This document shows, one piece after another, positions 1 to 8,572 of a stretch of DNA of 57,985 nucleotides. The translations under genes and the position numbers were made by a program. Source of the DNA: Porticoccaceae bacterium (GTDB lineage Bacteria; Pseudomonadota; Gammaproteobacteria; Pseudomonadales; Porticoccaceae). Each line of letters begins with the position of its first letter. Positions within the stretch are counted from its first letter, which is position 1. The notes below the pieces were generated by a model. That model was given only the letters and a program-made list of their open reading frames with translations, did not search any database and was not told the origin of the DNA. The DNA lies in the NCBI GenBank assembly GCA_029252555.1, contig JAQXBF010000012.1, positions 1 through 57,985 on the forward strand, read 5' to 3'.

Positions 1-19
1 AATAAACTGGAGATGCAAT

Positions 20-373
20 ATGAAGAAGATAGTAAGCCTAGTCCTGATGGGTTTGATGTTAACAACACCAGCCTTAGGCGCTGAGAAGTACATGGTTTCG
101 AAGATAAAGAACCTTCTAGTTGCTAGTGATGGTGACTTTGGTAACTGCATGGTTGAGCTTTATGTAAGCCCTACAACAGTCCTTTCAAGCTGCGCTGATG
201 GTTGGGTTAGCTTTAGCTGCTCGGGGACCTTTGCGGCCAAGTCAGATGCCAAAGGCATGATGGAAATGGCTCAGCTAGCGTTTCTGTTAGACAAAGAAGT
301 GAATATTGGTGTGGACGACTCTAAGCTCCACAACGGATATTGCTTGTCGAGTTATCTGGCCATTCTTCAGTAA
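20..373 (+). CDS. Secreted four-cysteine 117-aa protein, copy 1
   Basis: Function unknown. Residues 1-21 form a signal peptide (MKK start, hydrophobic core, cleavage near ALGA/EKY). The mature part of about 96 residues has four cysteines, in GNCMVEL, SSCADGW, FSCSGTF and NGYCLSS, which would allow two disulfides in the periplasm or outside the cell. The RBS ctggagatgc lies just before the start. The 19 bases ahead of the gene (aataaactggagatgcaat) match the end of the TSP3 tail gene found before copies 2 and 3, so a tail gene probably ends right at the window edge. The mature protein is identical to the copies at 2587 and 4457. The size and Cys pattern would suit a small OB-fold or B-subunit-like secreted protein, but that is only a guess. 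Confidence 0.85.
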   Translation: MKKIVSLVLMGLMLTTPALGAEKYMVSKIKNLLVASDGDFGNCMVELYVSPTTVLSSCADGWVSFSCSGTFAAKSDAKGMMEMAQLAFLLDKEVNIGVDDSKLHNGYCLSSYLAILQ

Positions 374-398
374 TTACTTAATAACTCATGGAGAAGCT

Positions 399-2426
399 AT
401 GTTTAACTTCCTAGCTGTTTGGTCAAAGACTCTGTGCTTTATAGTGCTTTTGTCATTTTCGTCACTAGGTTTTGCTGCAGATACAGATGGAGATGGCTAC
501 CCAGACGACGATGAGCTCGACTGGGGCAGTGATCCCTTGGATGCTAACTCTGTTCCAATGGGTGGTTTAAGTCTTACTCTGATAAAGGCATTCTTGGATA
601 AGCAAGAGGAGAGTGAGTCTGCCGCCGCCAATGGGACTTTAATCATTGGAAAATTATTATCTAAATATAATATTGGCGCAAATGTTTGCGCTGACAAAGA
701 TTTATCACTTACTTGCGATCCTCAAGAAGATATTGCAGTAACAGACGCAGACGGAGCATATAAACTCAACTTGACTAATCCGATAGATCAAGGATTTTTA
801 CTTGCCGAAATCAGCTCTCAAAATACAAAGGATACTTCTGGATTAAAGCCTGATAATTCATACGCACTTATGGCTCCTGGGATAATTATAGGGGGTACTC
901 AATCGAACAATATCTCTGTTTATACTACTATTCTAGCTGGATTGTTTCTTGACGACCCTTCAATTGAAAACTCCGAGTCAACATTCAACAGGGTTCAGAG
1001 GACACTAGAGTCTTCGATCCAATTGAAGTCTAAAATTGATGAAGACTTCATTGCTAACGATGATTCAAATGCGCAGTCCGCATCAGAGACCTTTCAAGGG
1101 ACTATTGAGGAAGTGCAGATTGATCTTGCTGATAGGGCGCGCTCTATTCTTCAATTAGCAAAAGGTGACACCTCTGGCTTAAGTATTAATCGCTCGGCAT
1201 ATACCTTCGCCGTTGATTTGGCTGCTCAGCAGGCAATCTATGAATTCTACTTGCAAGAGTCAGATGACGCATCGAGACAAGTCAAGGCAGCCGAGAAAAG
1301 TTCCTTTAGCAAATCTTCTAAGACCTCTGTTGATGTGAATCAAAGTGCCGCTTATGTGGCATCGGATGTGTCTGGTGGGACTGAAGAAATAAATCCGATG
1401 GCTGATACTTTGAGGAATCATGTAATAGTCGCCGGCTCTGGGATAGTAGCAAAATCATATGGAGGCCAGTGCAATTATGATTCGTCTGAAGATTATACTC
1501 AGATTGATTATTTGTCTTTTGACAATAACTCTGTAGCGGCTACAAATTTTTATCTTGACGGCGAAAGCTGGTTTCAGCCTTGCACAGGAGCGCCTGAAGA
1601 CTCGGATACTTATGTGTTATCAGCCTCAGGATGGGTCTTAGAGCAGCAATTTGGCTTAAATGGGTACGCGACTGAAGATAACTGTTTGATTGAGAATGAA
1701 GTCCCAGATCATTCAATAAAAAGGAAATATTGTTCTACAACTCGCGACTACTCTGGTGAAAGAATATCTATGGTTTTGCCAGATGTTGAGGGCCTGCCTG
1801 AAGCTGATACGTTTCCATCGGACTCCATAGCATTCGATGTGACCTGGACTAGAGAGGTCGACAGAGTTGAAATCTATACGATTTTTGCAGGATCAAATGG
1901 CGCTCTAGATTTTTCTTCTGATAAAAGCTCGTTAGTTGATTTCTTAAATCATAAAGTGGATAGAAATAAGCAAGGCAACTATGCTGACTTCTGGTGGGAA
2001 AAAAATACTCACCTACGTATCGTCAGCTTTGATGAGTCGTTAAAAGAGGGCTCTGCTTTATGGTATGACTCTAGTAAGGGCACGCCTGAAAATCATCAGA
2101 GTGGTAGTGGTGAAGGATGGGAGGTAAGGCCTTTTAGGGTGCAAGACGTTTTCGGAGTACCGATAGCAGTTTTTGATCGTAATGGGTACTCAATGGTTTC
2201 ATTCTCGTCCCCTGAATCATTTAACGATATTCCAGTGCTCGCATATCTTAGTAGTGAAGATGCTAATGGGATTTCTTCGGGTGTTTATCGAGGAGCCTTG
2301 GAGGGGCCCAACATTCCGTCTCGTCATAACGTAGGGCGATCTGATCTAGATAGATTCACCAATCTAACCTTTATCAATGCCGTCTTTGACTCTTTAGGAT
2401 TGCCTAGGTTACCAGTTCAGAGGTAG
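399..2426 (+). CDS. Mosaic TSP3-repeat surface/secreted protein (675 aa)
   Basis: No function recognised. I chose the ATG at 399, not the upstream frame opening at 306, because it has a good RBS (ggagaagct), starts after copy 1 ends and begins with a clear signal peptide (FIVLLSFSSLGFAA). Directly after it come one Ca2+-binding TSP3/EF-hand-like repeat (DTDGDGYPDDDELD) and the tail motif PMGGLSLTLIKAFLDKQ at about residues 50-66. The remaining 600 residues hold a carboxypeptidase-regulatory-like stretch (VTDADGAYKLNL) and Ser/Asp-rich sequence without a family I know. In the cupredoxin gene at 3615 the same TSP3-plus-tail module is at the C-terminus, so this gene looks like a fusion of a tail module with a different body. 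Base composition is A+T-rich compared with the core genes. Confidence 0.8.
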   Translation: MFNFLAVWSKTLCFIVLLSFSSLGFAADTDGDGYPDDDELDWGSDPLDANSVPMGGLSLTLIKAFLDKQEESESAAANGTLIIGKLLSKYNIGANVCADKDLSLTCDPQEDIAVTDADGAYKLNLTNPIDQGFLLAEISSQNTKDTSGLKPDNSYALMAPGIIIGGTQSNNISVYTTILAGLFLDDPSIENSESTFNRVQRTLESSIQLKSKIDEDFIANDDSNAQSASETFQGTIEEVQIDLADRARSILQLAKGDTSGLSINRSAYTFAVDLAAQQAIYEFYLQESDDASRQVKAAEKSSFSKSSKTSVDVNQSAAYVASDVSGGTEEINPMADTLRNHVIVAGSGIVAKSYGGQCNYDSSEDYTQIDYLSFDNNSVAATNFYLDGESWFQPCTGAPEDSDTYVLSASGWVLEQQFGLNGYATEDNCLIENEVPDHSIKRKYCSTTRDYSGERISMVLPDVEGLPEADTFPSDSIAFDVTWTREVDRVEIYTIFAGSNGALDFSSDKSSLVDFLNHKVDRNKQGNYADFWWEKNTHLRIVSFDESLKEGSALWYDSSKGTPENHQSGSGEGWEVRPFRVQDVFGVPIAVFDRNGYSMVSFSSPESFNDIPVLAYLSSEDANGISSGVYRGALEGPNIPSRHNVGRSDLDRFTNLTFINAVFDSLGLPRLPVQR

Positions 2427-2476
2427 ACAAAATTCAGCGAGTGATAAAAAGTGGGATTATAGGAATCCAAATAAAA

Positions 2477-2572
2477 GGCACTGACCTATTAAATGCTTGT
2501 TCAGCTCCTATGGGCGGATAAAGGCTTATCCTAATTAAAGCGTTCTTAGATAAACAAAAAGCAGATGAATAA
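2477..2572 (+). pseudogene. Relic of a TSP3-tail gene 3' end
   Basis: Read in one frame this stretch gives GTDLLNACSAPMGG, stop, RLILIKAFLDKQKADE, stop. It aligns without gaps to the C-terminus of the 3615-4442 gene (GTDPLDANSAPMGG then LSLILIKAFLDKQKADQ). A TTA-to-TAA change kills the frame. No start or upstream domain remains, so only the 3' end was carried along with copy 2 of the 117-aa gene. Confidence 0.75.
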
Positions 2573-2586
2573 ATCGGAGATGTAAT

Positions 2587-2940
2587 ATGAAGAAGATAAT
2601 AAGCCTGGTCCTAATGGGTTTGATGTTAACAACACCAGCCATAGGTGCTGAAAAGTACATGGTATCGAAGATAAAGAACCTCCTTGTAGCCAGTGATGGT
2701 GACTTTGGTAACTGCATGGTTGAGCTTTATGTAAGCCCTACAACAGTCCTTTCAAGCTGTGCTGATGGTTGGGTTAGCTTTAGCTGTTCCGGTACCTTTG
2801 CGGCTAAGTCAGATGCCAAAGGCATGATGGAAATGGCTCAGCTAGCGTTTCTGTTGGACAAAGAAGTGAATATCGGTGTGGACGACTCTAAGCTGCACAA
2901 CGGATATTGCTTGTCGAGCTATCTGGCAATTTTGCAATGA
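2587..2940 (+). CDS. Secreted four-cysteine 117-aa protein, copy 2
   Basis: Same protein as the copies at 20 and 4457. Only signal-peptide residues differ (MKKIISL, PAIGA), and the mature sequence with its four cysteines is identical. RBS atcggagatg. The stop TGA overlaps the ATG of the next gene (ATGA at 2937-2940), so copy 2 is translationally coupled to the unknown protein at 2937. Long stretches of DNA identity with copy 1, from about 2700 on, next to more diverged stretches would fit gene conversion between copies. Confidence 0.85.
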   Translation: MKKIISLVLMGLMLTTPAIGAEKYMVSKIKNLLVASDGDFGNCMVELYVSPTTVLSSCADGWVSFSCSGTFAAKSDAKGMMEMAQLAFLLDKEVNIGVDDSKLHNGYCLSSYLAILQ

Positions 2941-3452
2941 AGTATGTGTCATTGGGTGTCGCCTTTTTAATTGCTTTGTCTTTTCACCTTTTGAAAGAGG
3001 AGGTAGAAGTTGCATCCATAGCTGCGAAACCTGCATGGGAAGCTCGAAATAATGTAAGTGCAACTCTCAAAGGTGTTAGCAAAACAGACCCAGCGAGAGC
3101 GCATGATGGGAGCGTATTATCTTTGGAATCCAGGTCAAAGCTATTCTCTACTGTGGTCAGAATAGGTCCAGATTTAACTGTGCCGAATCACAGTGACCGC
3201 CAGAACGTTGAGGTCATTAGCATAGGTGAAATAAAGACTGTAGGTACGGTTGATCACAGTAGGTATTTTACTGATGAGGTTGAAATCGACGGCGAACTAA
3301 AAGACGTCTCTGAACTTATTGATGACGGTGTAATCAAGGAAGTTAAAATTGATGGTAGTTTAAAAGTAGCTGGGGCCCTAGACTACTCTTTTTCAAACGG
3401 GCCACCAGTAGTTGTCGGGAAAACTAAATTTGTGGAAGATAATGCCCCCTAA
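2937..3452 (+). CDS. Hypothetical membrane-anchored protein (171 aa)
   Basis: No family recognised. The start is the ATG that overlaps the stop of the 117-aa gene by 4 bp. An upstream in-frame start at 2907 would lie inside that gene and is less likely. An N-terminal hydrophobic segment (YVSLGVAFLIALSFHLL) suggests a signal anchor or an uncleaved signal peptide. The rest is hydrophilic with short valine- and aspartate-rich strands (EVEIDGELKDVSEL, VKIDGSLKVAGAL) that hint at a repetitive beta structure. Because it is coupled to copy 2, it may be a partner of the secreted protein. It does not appear beside copies 1 or 3. Confidence 0.65.
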   Translation: MKYVSLGVAFLIALSFHLLKEEVEVASIAAKPAWEARNNVSATLKGVSKTDPARAHDGSVLSLESRSKLFSTVVRIGPDLTVPNHSDRQNVEVISIGEIKTVGTVDHSRYFTDEVEIDGELKDVSELIDDGVIKEVKIDGSLKVAGALDYSFSNGPPVVVGKTKFVEDNAP

Positions 3453-3614
3453 ACATTTTTAGGTTTAACATGCTCTGTAATCGGCCAGAGGCACTAATGG
3501 GGGAGCATTAAGTTGTAGGAACTTGCCCAATTGCCGCGTTAAGAAATTAGCCGTTCAGCATAATCCAAAAAATGTTACGCCCCGTATCCTCAACGTTATT
3601 CATGGGGTATTGTG

Positions 3615-4442
3615 ATGTTTCCAAAGATAAGGGTTCCTCTAAGCAGCTCTAAATCAGGCTCTCAAGTTCAAGGCCGGTGGGCCTCCGGAATCATAGTTTG
3701 GTGCCTGATTGCCGGGTCCGTGAGCGCAGATGACATCTATGTTCGCTTAAATTCTAATCCCTTTTCGTCTCCTTTCTATATCTTTTCGTCTAGCGAAAAT
3801 GGTGTCTCAGAATCAATCGAACTCACCAAGGGTTCAACCTATGTTTTTATTCGAACGGATTCAGGGCACCCTTTTAATGTAGGTTCAGGCTGGCGAACAG
3901 CTCATCCAGAGCTAACCTCGAGTAGCACGGCGTCGGGTGATGCGGTCTCTGGGGTTGCTTCGATAGAACGCGGAGAGAGGTTAACGGTAACAATTCCGGA
4001 GAACTTTAGCGGCAGCACCGTGGCGTACTACTGTTTCCCTCATTCATCTATGGTTGCGAACATTTCAGTGGTAAGTGCTCCCGCTGGCCTAGATACAGAT
4101 TCTGATGGTATCTTAGATTCAAACGACCCAGACGACGATGGAGACGGTTTGTCAGACGCGCTGGAAGCTACCATCGGAACCAATCCCCTGATAGTTGATT
4201 CGGATGATGACGGTGTTGACGATGGATCAGACGCCTTTCCCCTGAATCCAAACGAAACAACTGACACCGATTCGGACGGAATCGGAGATAATTCGGACAG
4301 TGACGATGATAATGATGGTTACACAGATGCCGAAGAAGCAAATGAAGGTACTGATCCACTCGATGCTAATTCAGCCCCTATGGGTGGCTTAAGTCTTATT
4401 CTAATTAAAGCATTCTTAGATAAACAAAAAGCAGATCAATAA
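3615..4442 (+). CDS. Cupredoxin-like domain fused to TSP3 repeats
   Basis: Predicted secreted copper-binding protein with a Ca2+-binding tail. After a long n-region, a hydrophobic stretch (IIVWCLIAGSVSA) ends near residue 37. Residues about 40-150 resemble a cupredoxin: a first histidine in SGHPFNVG and a late Cys-His-Met cluster in YYCFPHSSM give the ligand set of a type-1 copper site. Residues about 160-250 are Asp-rich TSP3 repeats (DTDSDGILDSNDPDDDGDG and similar). The C-terminus is the tail PMGGLSLILIKAFLDKQKADQ. A GTG at 3612 is an alternative start. Copy 3 of the 117-aa gene follows 14 bp later. The electron-transfer partner, if any, is unknown. Confidence 0.75.
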   Translation: MFPKIRVPLSSSKSGSQVQGRWASGIIVWCLIAGSVSADDIYVRLNSNPFSSPFYIFSSSENGVSESIELTKGSTYVFIRTDSGHPFNVGSGWRTAHPELTSSSTASGDAVSGVASIERGERLTVTIPENFSGSTVAYYCFPHSSMVANISVVSAPAGLDTDSDGILDSNDPDDDGDGLSDALEATIGTNPLIVDSDDDGVDDGSDAFPLNPNETTDTDSDGIGDNSDSDDDNDGYTDAEEANEGTDPLDANSAPMGGLSLILIKAFLDKQKADQ

Positions 4443-4810
4443 ACCGGAGATGTAATATGAGGAAATTAGTAAGCCTAGTCCTAATGGGTTTGATGTTAAC
4501 AACACCAGCCATAGGCGCTGAGAAGTACATGGTATCGAAGATCAAGAATCTCCTTGTAGCGAGTGATGGTGACTTTGGTAACTGCATGGTTGAGCTTTAT
4601 GTAAGCCCCACAACAGTACTCTCAAGCTGTGCTGATGGATGGGTGAGCTTTAGCTGTTCAGGCACCTTTGCTGCTAAGTCTGATGCCAAGGGTATGATGG
4701 AGATGGCTCAGCTTGCCTTTCTGTTAGATAAAGAAGTAAACATCGGTGTTGACGACTCCAAGCTACACAACGGGTATTGCTTGTCGAGCTATCTCGCCAT
4801 ACTGCAGTAG
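4347..4810 (+). repeat. 464-bp direct repeat, unit C (tail + 117-aa gene)
   Basis: Partner of the unit at 2477-2940 with the same length. Here the tail part is intact and forms the end of the cupredoxin-TSP3 gene, so this is probably closest to the original arrangement. Confidence 0.8.
4457..4810 (+). CDS. Secreted four-cysteine 117-aa protein, copy 3
   Basis: Third copy of the protein at 20 and 2587, with signal-peptide changes only (MRKLVSL). The mature part is unchanged at protein level, although I count about 30 silent differences from copy 2. RBS accggagatg. It sits 14 bp after the cupredoxin-TSP3 gene and is probably co-transcribed with it. The 240 bp that follow, to the OMP gene at 5053, hold no gene that I can see. 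Confidence 0.85.
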   Translation: MRKLVSLVLMGLMLTTPAIGAEKYMVSKIKNLLVASDGDFGNCMVELYVSPTTVLSSCADGWVSFSCSGTFAAKSDAKGMMEMAQLAFLLDKEVNIGVDDSKLHNGYCLSSYLAILQ

Positions 4811-5052
4811 TCGTCCCTAAACTGCTGCCAGCGTTCTAGCAGACCGGAGGAAGGGCCTTACGTGACCTTAGCCACATTGCCAGATGTGTTTGCTAGTTCC
4901 CTCTGCATCCTTCCTGAAGCGCAGGACATACGTTTGGCTTTATAATATCACCAGTTTTAAAGAAAAAACGATTGCTAACACGACTCGTTGGCTATTACGA
5001 ATGCAGTTTTAAAAACTCTCAACGCAAGCTGGTTTTTTGTAAGATTGAAACT

Positions 5053-6968: not shown

Positions 6969-7059
6969 TGGCGGTGAGAGAGGGATTCGAACCCTCGAAA
7001 CGCTACAAACGCTTACACACTTTCCAGGCGTGCTCCTTCAGCCACTCGGACACCTCACC
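6969..7059 (-). tRNA. tRNA-Ser (GGA)
   Basis: Acceptor stem GGTGAGG pairs with TCTCACC, discriminator G, CCA encoded. The long variable arm and T-loop GGTTCGAATCC are visible, and the anticodon loop CTGGAAA gives anticodon GGA. It is nearly identical to enteric tRNA-Ser(GGA) as I remember it. Its 3' end faces the accessory block, the usual side for island integration. Confidence 0.97.
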
Positions 7060-7250: not shown

Positions 7251-7823
7251 ATGATATGGAAAGAGATCATTTACCCGTCGCCAAAACTGCAGGAGCTCTA
7301 TCGGCTAGCGCTATGCTTGTGTGGGGCCATTATTTTATTGGGAGCCTGGAATGATATCGGCTACCACCCTGCTCTTCTAGCCTTACTACCTACTTTGGTT
7401 CTCTATCAACTTAGCAGCTATTTCAACGCCAAATCACTCGCCTTCAGCCCAAAAAAGCAGCGACTGTCGCTTTTATTGGACTTTGTGGACGGCATCCTGA
7501 CTGGCGTGCTCATCGCCTTTGTTAGCTTTGATCTCATACTCAGCCTAGCGCTGGGAATGGCTTTTTTGATCGCCATTATTAGCGCTATGAAAGCCACCGC
7601 TCCTCTTGACCTATTTGGCCTTTTTGTTGGTCTGCTGCTGACCTATTGGCTATCTCCCGTTACCATTATCCCCAGCCATAGAGCTCAGCTAATGATACTG
7701 GTTGTTGTGGCTGGCTACTGGTTGTGGCTGGCTACTGTCTGCTGCAATCAAATATGGCGCGTCATACTCACGATATGCTTGCTGAACAGCACGATTCTGT
7801 TTTACGCCGAAACGAATGGTTAA
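7251..7823 (+). CDS. MASE2-type membrane sensor half of an interrupted adenylate cyclase
   Basis: The 190 residues form several transmembrane helices (ALCLCGAIILLGAW, LLALLPTLVLYQL, FVDGILTGVLIAFVSF, LALGMAFLIAIISAM, DLFGLFVGLLLTYWL, MILVVVAGYWLWLATV) in the layout of the MASE2 sensor domain, which normally precedes a class III cyclase in one protein. Here the frame ends at 7823. In another frame, from about 7802, the sequence reads on through a linker (LRRNEWLTLRTFRL), a TGA at 7844, then [12 protein letters not shown] and the cyclase domain. The simplest reading is a frameshift in the TTTT run at 7800-7803 plus a nonsense codon in an originally continuous gene. A separate membrane protein is less likely. 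Confidence 0.65.
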   Translation: MIWKEIIYPSPKLQELYRLALCLCGAIILLGAWNDIGYHPALLALLPTLVLYQLSSYFNAKSLAFSPKKQRLSLLLDFVDGILTGVLIAFVSFDLILSLALGMAFLIAIISAMKATAPLDLFGLFVGLLLTYWLSPVTIIPSHRAQLMILVVVAGYWLWLATVCCNQIWRVILTICLLNSTILFYAETNG

Positions 7824-7879: not shown

Positions 7880-8572
7880 TTGACAGGCAAGGATGTTAGC
7901 GCTGAAACTCAGGAAAAGGCGCTAACAATCTTTTTCTCAGACATGGAAGGCTTTACCAAACTAGCGGAGAAGCTTGACCCAGAGCAGCTTACCTCACTGC
8001 TCAATACCTACTTGATCGTCATGTCTGAAATTGCCTTTCGCTTTGGTGGCACTATCGACACAGTTATTGGCGATTCGATTATGGTGTTCGTTGGGGAACC
8101 CGATAGCCGCGGTGTGAGATCTGATGCCATCACCTATGTGTCTATGGCCATTGCGATGAGAAAGGCCATGAAAGATTTACAGCAGCGCTGGCAAGCTGAG
8201 GGCATAGAGTACCCGCCTGCACTGCGTATGGGCATTAATAGCGGGGTCTGTAAAGTGGGCAATTTCGGCACTGAGAATCGGCTAGACTACATCTTACTTG
8301 GTCGTCCGGTGAACCTGGCCAGCCGCATTGAATCCTCTGCCGAGAGCAATGAGATATTGCTCTCTGAGGACACCTATGGCCTAGTGCGTGAAGCTATTTA
8401 CTGTATCGACAAAGGTCAAATCTCTATTAAAGGATTTGCACAGCCAGTTAATGCCTGCAGTGCCGTCGATCTGCACAAGCATCTAAAAACCTACTACCCA
8501 CCCATGGTGACAGAGCCTGCAGTTGCTCAGGCACAAACTAGTACCGGCAGGCTACTCATAGTCTGCTATTGA
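7880..8572 (+). CDS. Class III adenylate/guanylate cyclase catalytic half
   Basis: Makes cAMP (less likely cGMP) from the nucleotide triphosphate. Catalytic marks are present: first metal Asp in FFSDMEGFT, second in GDSIMVF, nucleotide-binding region [13 protein letters not shown], and Asn and Arg of VNLASRIES for transition-state binding. The frame begins at a TTG without a clear RBS, and conserved linker residues (KYLSPPLRKAI) lie just upstream, after the TGA at 7844. It was therefore probably the C-terminal half of the MASE2 protein at 7251. It might still be made by reinitiation. Its 3' end overlaps gcvP, on the other strand, by about 20 bp. Confidence 0.75.

What the first reader, a model, noticed from the sequence alone, without database searches (positions are those of the whole stretch)
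1..4810. Recombining cassette: tail module plus secreted 117-aa gene in three copies
Two 464-bp units (2477-2940, 4347-4810) have the same length with no indel, and a third unit is cut by the window edge at 1-373. Each unit couples a TSP3 tail end with the same secreted gene, while the genes between units differ (mosaic TSP3 protein, unknown membrane protein, cupredoxin fusion). This looks like a mobile or duplicating gene pair that picks up new neighbours. No transposase or integrase is in the window, so the mechanism is open.
Basis: partly seen in the sequence, partly recalled or inferred. Interest (0 to 1): 0.75.

Follow-up and report, generated by a model that had tools for sequence, protein, structure and literature searches.

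The report
Frozen secreted protein in triplicate
A bacterium carries three old copies of a small exported protein whose mature part has stayed letter-for-letter identical, beside rod-like exported proteins and a membrane protein; similar genes recur together in some relatives, so this looks like part of an undescribed cell-surface module rather than a recently copied jumping unit.

Summary
The repeats are real: two 464-bp units and a third cut at 1-373 by the contig end. Recent mobility of the unit is not supported. The three 117-aa genes differ at 7-12% of bases, dS 0.34-0.82, dN about 0.01; their mature parts, and that of a relative, are identical; DNA beyond the units is unalike. These are old copies under strong purifying selection.

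The gene belongs to a family without curated match in the libraries searched, found in 35 other genomes of four families plus one named MAG. Of 39 loci, 23 have a one-helix membrane protein with GE[FY]IDPD-type repeats within 2.5 kb and 10 a TSP3 protein, fused in frame in three. The window holds scattered pieces of such loci. The array lies 3' of tRNA-Ser; in a congener this tRNA bounds an 8.9-kb integrase element with 20-bp repeats. No integrase or second repeat was found here, so island origin is likely, not shown.

Mechanism (inferred): the small protein is a periplasmic adaptor between tail-bearing rod cargo and the repeat protein. Untested.

The parts
20..373 (+). copy 1 of the small secreted protein gene (SSP, 117 aa; its upstream tail is beyond the contig edge)
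399..2426 (+). gene B, 675 aa: signal peptide, one TSP3 repeat (just below Pfam cut-off), tail GSDPLDANSVPMGGLSLTLIKAFLDKQ, then a long region without convincing family match; N-terminal 69 aa shared with L007, the rest not
2477..2569 (+). remnant of a TSP3-protein tail with one in-frame TAA
2587..2940 (+). copy 2 of SSP
2937..3452 (+). 171-aa protein with N-terminal hydrophobic stretch; its ATG overlaps the SSP stop (ATGA); possible diverged member of the GE[FY]IDPD-repeat partner family
   Evidence: 2 of 200 shuffles reach its score, but 11 unrelated ORFs outrank it
3612..4442 (+). 276-aa protein: signal peptide, cupredoxin-like region (sub-threshold), TSP3 repeats, C-terminal tail GGLSLILIKAFLDKQKADQ
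4457..4810 (+). copy 3 of SSP
6969..7059 (-). tRNA-Ser(gga); its 3' end faces the array; integration site in a congener

Best explanation
The array is a scattered, partly decayed set of pieces of an undescribed cell-envelope module. Its core is a small exported protein (SSP, about 97 mature residues, four invariant cysteines). Elsewhere SSP recurs beside a one-helix membrane protein with one to five GE[FYW][IL]DPD-type repeats and, less often, beside or fused to exported TSP3-rod proteins, some of which end in a short hydrophobic/basic tail. Shown: the copies, their age, their purifying selection, the family, the recurrent neighbours and the fusions. Inferred: SSP is the periplasmic adaptor that binds the tail or rod of the cargo, the repeat protein tethers it to the inner membrane, and different cargo (cupredoxin-like, subtilase, others) shares one SSP design, which is why the copies are frozen. 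The block probably came with a genomic island at tRNA-Ser; old duplication and decay of neighbours gave the present layout.
For: Selection: mature SSP is identical in four copies although 45 sites vary, 44 of them third-position. Gene B's N-module beside it has 12 of 23 changed codons non-synonymous against 0 of 23 in SSP for the same pair (Fisher p 7e-5). Family: A3, 45 sequences, invariant G and four C, near-invariant W. Partner within 2.5 kb in 23 of 39 loci, in 18 of these overlapping or within 50 bp; no ORF farther off in these loci passes the same criteria. L081's partner was found although not in training. TSP3: 10 of 39 loci, with in-frame SSP-TSP3 fusions in L028 (two), L087, L088. 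L080: subtilase-TSP3-tail, SSP, partner with gaps of 28 and 9 bp. Tails. Island: 0 of 49 other congeners have SSP at E<=0.01; GC 0.426 left and 0.487 right of tRNA-Ser; att-flanked integrase element at the same tRNA in L136.
Against: No interaction data. 16 of 39 loci lack a recognisable partner and 29 lack a TSP3 gene by my criterion, for which no background rate was measured. Loci are not independent: L029/L089/L090, L031/L101, L071/L082/L083/L084 and L097/L100/L102/L106 share neighbours. The partner score limit of 15 was set after seeing the ranking. The window's own partner candidate scores 3.5 bits; 11 ORFs that I do not count as partners outrank it. Tail patterns were recognised after looking: the GWRL form is at the C-terminus of 4 distinct near ORFs against 0 of 740 far ones (p 0.011, one of the four on the opposite strand), but the SLLLK form is not enriched (2 of 353 near, 2 of 740 far). 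The fold could not be predicted (pLDDT 38). No integrase or second att copy here. GC also drops by 0.035 or more left of this tRNA in 6 of 10 relatives, so GC says little about this array. Several SSP loci lie among polysaccharide genes.
Confidence: 0.45

Rival explanations
1. A mobile or recombining cassette: the 464-bp tail+gene unit itself moves or is copied by recombination and picks up new neighbours.
For: Same unit with different neighbours in the window and in L007; L007's SSP is slightly nearer to copies 2 and 3 (27 and 28 differences) than to copy 1 (29), while its downstream gene matches copy 1's.
Against: Old divergence (dS 0.34-0.82), no similarity beyond the units between window copies, no inverted repeats of 12 bp or more around units 2 and 3, MaxChi not significant (lowest p 0.07).
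Confidence: 0.1
2. SSP is an exported effector or toxin-like protein and the membrane protein its immunity partner; copies are kept as weapons.
For: Small, cysteine-rich, exported, gene-overlapping with a membrane protein; patchy distribution; one of 45 members has a weak match to a B-subunit-like NCBIfam model, E 0.0069.
Against: The copies are frozen, whereas effectors tend to vary (general knowledge); the partner is a repeat of a short motif, unlike immunity proteins that I recall; ten members rescanned at full length did not show the weak match. No PADLOC scan was made.
Confidence: 0.1
3. SSP is an accessory of surface-polysaccharide export or decoration, and the TSP3 link is secondary.
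For: Of ten neighbour proteins that I picked from seven loci, nine match glycan-related or transport families: ABC-2 (L029), acyltransferase (L030), RmlD (L031), flippase-like below cut-off and glycosyltransferase (L032), ManC-like (L074), nucleotidyl transferase (L095), epimerase and glycosyltransferase (L105).
Against: The ten were hand-picked, so this is no rate; in-frame SSP-TSP3 fusions in three genomes.
Confidence: 0.15
4. An ordinary old tandem array of surface-protein genes, perhaps in a genomic island, with no functional unity between SSP, rods and membrane protein.
For: Diverse neighbours; partner missing in 16 of 39 loci and TSP3 in 29; weak likeness of the window's own partner candidate.
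Against: The same companions recur in distant families, with gene overlaps and in-frame fusions.
Confidence: 0.2

Closest known systems
C-terminal sorting tails for surface proteins (PEP-CTERM, GlyGly-CTERM/rhombosortase, type IX CTD; recalled, not fetched)
   Same: variable exported cargo ending in a short constant tail, with a dedicated partner encoded nearby
   Different: no membrane helix plus basic cluster at the tail; no sortase or rhomboid family among the eight left-end window proteins scanned; NCBIfam scan of five window proteins gave no such tail model
Bacterial TSP3 (PF18884) rod proteins
   Same: window protein 3612-4442 and neighbours in L071, L080 and L082 carry TSP3_bac repeats
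   Different: here beside the SSP family, in three genomes fused to it in frame
tRNA-integrated genomic islands with tyrosine integrase
   Same: array on the 3' side of tRNA-Ser; the same site in congener L136 holds an integrase element between 20-bp repeats
   Different: no integrase or second att repeat found in this genome so far
DUF5992 (PF19454)
   Same: three of 45 SSP members match weakly; the two seen in detail (15.0 and 14.2 bits) align residues 30-77 and 34-74
   Different: below the curated cut-off of 23.8; a lead only

Membership tests
mobile gene cassette or transposon | recombinase gene or terminal inverted repeats with the unit | tested here: not met
   no inverted repeats of 12 bp or more in 2300-3100 or 4200-5000; no recombinase family in the eight left-end proteins scanned
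mobile gene cassette or transposon | recent, near-identical copies with sharp junctions | tested here: not met
   dS 0.34-0.82; similarity ends at the unit ends
tRNA-site genomic island | location on the 3' side of a tRNA used as integration site | tested here: met
   tRNA-Ser 6969-7059, 3' end towards the array, 2.2 kb away; 20-bp 3'-end repeat and integrase in L136
tRNA-site genomic island | own integrase and second att copy | tested here: inconclusive
   not found in the window nor in 76 other contig-end stretches; contig interiors were not seen and the array contig is cut on that side; the two near-matches are 3' ends of other tRNA-Ser genes
TSP3_bac protein (PF18884) | Pfam gathering score | tested here: met
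   3612-4442 at 53.2 bits against 25; gene B at 23.8, just below
SSP as a member of a described protein family | match to a curated family above cut-off | tested here: not met
   Pfam scan of 45 members: best E 0.0007 (DUF2695, 20.1 bits against 25, 19 residues); NCBIfam scan of 45: best E 0.0069; PHROGs: none for the one window copy scanned; PDB sequences: E 0.2 or worse
AB5-type B-subunit fold | OB-fold and pentamer | tested here: inconclusive
   one of 45 members at E 0.0069 to a B-subunit-like model; AlphaFold model too poor, pLDDT 38, so no fold search was made

The most novel reading that the evidence does not exclude
A new bacterial cargo-display system: TSP3-rod proteins carry a portable hydrophobic tail, at the C-terminus or just after the signal peptide; a frozen four-cysteine adaptor binds it, and an inner-membrane scaffold with several GE[FY]IDPD docking motifs arrays the adaptors, much as a scaffoldin arrays dockerins.
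Probability: 0.2. Interest if true: 0.8.

Novelty: new variant of a known kind. Interest (0 to 1): 0.5.

Why it matters
It gives a profile and companions to a protein family that the curated libraries searched here lack. It is a strong case of an exported protein whose mature part shows no amino-acid change at dS up to 0.8 in triplicate, which implies a demanding, shared job. If the adaptor reading is right, it adds a new way for Gram-negative bacteria to attach variable proteins to the envelope, testable with three small genes.

Tried and rejected
Recent duplication or assembly artefact: unlikely. Recombination between units: MaxChi on nine triplets, lowest p 0.07, uncorrected. Phage or plasmid origin: tblastn of SSP at E<=0.1 finds none in 50,697 phage and 72,556 plasmid records; the single IMG/VR hit L008 lies in an exonuclease-like ORF (my reading) and is spurious; a second IMG/VR scan with A2 found none. 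Fold: single-sequence AlphaFold failed, so no fold search was run. Contig bridging: no overlap of other contig ends with position 1 and no integrase there; two att-like 20-mers are 3' ends of tRNA-Ser(tga) and tRNA-Ser(gct). Weak matches dropped as partial or stop-ridden: G045, G132, G196, G024, G030. SSP places found but not fetched: G820:C7, G860:C157, G982:C72. tRNA genes near other SSP loci: 11 in 9 of 41 stretches, three within 150 bp of an SSP or its partner; no background test. Literature: five searches, listings and abstract starts only, nothing on such a module; this is no proof that it is unpublished.

Full report
Observation. Three ORFs of 117 aa lie at 20-373, 2587-2940 and 4457-4810; repeats D1-D3 reproduce the units and a shorter tail copy at 525-605. 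The own genome (2,297,964 bases, 40 contigs) has exactly these three copies. The window is contig C38 in full, so the left end is an assembly break.

Age and selection. Pairwise differences over the 354-bp gene are 25, 42 and 39 among the window copies and 27-29 to the only relative found in genome contigs, L007 (3,126-bp contig of MAG SI034_bin143, titled Piscirickettsiaceae). NG86 dS is 0.34-0.82 and dN 0.004-0.011. Amino-acid changes fall only at positions 2, 4, 5 and 19, in the putative signal peptide. The mature 97 residues are identical in all four, despite 45 variable sites, 44 at third positions. Between window copies the 60 bp beyond the units show 20-27% ungapped identity, whereas copy 1 and L007 continue at 90%. 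Equal length and absence of indels therefore fit coding constraint on two segments and a short spacer with a conserved GGAGATG. By the counts, copy 1 groups with 2 and copy 3 with L007, while L007's downstream gene matches that of copy 1; exchange between units is possible, but MaxChi gives p 0.07 at the lowest in nine uncorrected tests.

Gene B. Window 399-2426 and L007 551-2239 share 69 N-terminal residues (signal, TSP3, tail) and part right after LIKAFLDK; L007 continues into FG-GAP repeats. In that shared module 12 of 23 changed codons are non-synonymous, against 0 of 23 in mature SSP for the same pair (Fisher p 7e-5).

Family. With the single protein, 8 of 390 genomes of the order match at E<=0.01, of which five are convincing, the own one included. 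With profile A2: class draw 2 of 369, own included; family of G110 28 of 200; family of G148 1 of 3; family of G493 5 of 24. With profile A3: order draw 5 of 381, own included; phylum draw 1 of 398, the own one. Of 50 genomes of the genus only the own one matches at E<=0.01. That makes 35 other genomes in four families, some hits being fragments at contig ends. These searches score a capped number of candidates per genome, so absences are not absolute. Alignment A3 (45 rows) has invariant G21, C23, C38, C47, C88 and near-invariant W42, V43, S46, G49, A67. No match in Pfam, NCBIfam, PHROGs or PDB sequences is convincing; DUF5992 in three of 45 members, below cut-off, is a lead.

Companions. Around relatives I took 41 stretches; three further places found were not fetched. 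In L094 the SSP frame holds a stop and L104 overlaps L087; both are left out, which leaves 39 loci. Some are plainly orthologous (see evidence against). A one-helix protein with repeats such as IGEYIDPD lies within 2.5 kb in 23 of 39, in 18 of these overlapping or within 50 bp, and no ORF farther off in these loci passes the same criteria. The motif profile was trained on ORFs near SSP and the score limit set after seeing the ranking, so the near count is partly circular; L081 was found although not in training. By a criterion of three or more TSP3 motifs, 10 of 39 loci have a TSP3 gene, fused in frame to SSP in three (L028, L087, L088); no background rate was measured. In L080 the order is subtilase-Ig-TSP3-tail, SSP, repeat protein. 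In L071 and L082-L084 it is SSP, TSP3 protein, repeat protein. In the window, copy 2 is followed by a 171-aa protein whose start overlaps the SSP stop; 2 of 200 shuffles reach its motif score, but the score is low (3.5 bits) and 11 ORFs not counted as partners outrank it, so its membership rests mainly on position and layout. Copy 3 follows the 276-aa rod protein; copy 2 follows only a tail remnant.

Tails. Some neighbouring large proteins end in short hydrophobic/basic tails: GGLSLILIKAFLDKQKADQ (window), SGSLLLKIVPALIEQG (L080), SSLLLRIIPRLLDD (L099, 1.9 kb away), and a GWRL form in L031, L072, L087 and L096. The GWRL form is at the C-terminus of four distinct near ORFs and of 0 of 740 far ones (p 0.011); the SLLLK form is in 2 of 353 near and 2 of 740 far, no enrichment. 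I noticed the patterns before counting them.

Setting. A tRNA-Ser(gga) lies at 6969-7059 with its 3' end towards the array. GC is 0.426 left and 0.487 right of it; six of ten relatives show a drop of 0.035 or more too. The gene right of the tRNA is found in 18 of 27 other genomes searched. I fetched 12 of these regions (four are under 10 kb) and scanned 11 for tRNAs: 10 have tRNA-Ser(gga). None of five left-side window proteins has a tblastn match at E<=1e-3 in the 12 regions. Left neighbours differ in most, although L140 and L142 share theirs; in L138, L139 and L143 other genes stand between the tRNA and this gene. In L136 a 20-bp repeat of the tRNA 3' end at 4168 and 13102 encloses an 8.9-kb element that begins with a DUF6538/phage-integrase gene. 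This shows that the site is used in the genus. For the own genome no second att copy and no integrase like that of L136 appeared in the window or in 76 other contig-end stretches.

Verdict. Observation confirmed; recent mobility of the unit not supported; coupling to TSP3 tails supported and widened. The best reading is an undescribed envelope module with a frozen, adaptor-like protein. The adaptor mechanism is inference.

Noticed in passing
window 7251-7823 and 7880-8572: A gene that is one open frame of 406-471 aa in 17 of 18 congeners with a match (370 aa in the other) is split into two ORFs here.
   Followed up: no
L136:4168-13102: An 8.9-kb element in a congener, integrase first, carries a 1,494-aa protein with Big_9, cadherin-like, subtilase and P-proprotein domains.
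   Followed up: partly
L077:4660-5285, L079:5456-6475, L096:4520-5173: SSP or its partner lies within 150 bp of a tRNA gene in three relatives.
   Followed up: no
L029, L030, L031, L032, L074, L095, L105: SSP genes of relatives lie near polysaccharide, nucleotide-sugar or export genes (hand-picked neighbours).
   Followed up: partly
L028:4977-6131: A 384-aa protein next to SSP carries GGWRVILL near its N-terminus, as gene B in the window carries its tail near the N-terminus.
   Followed up: no
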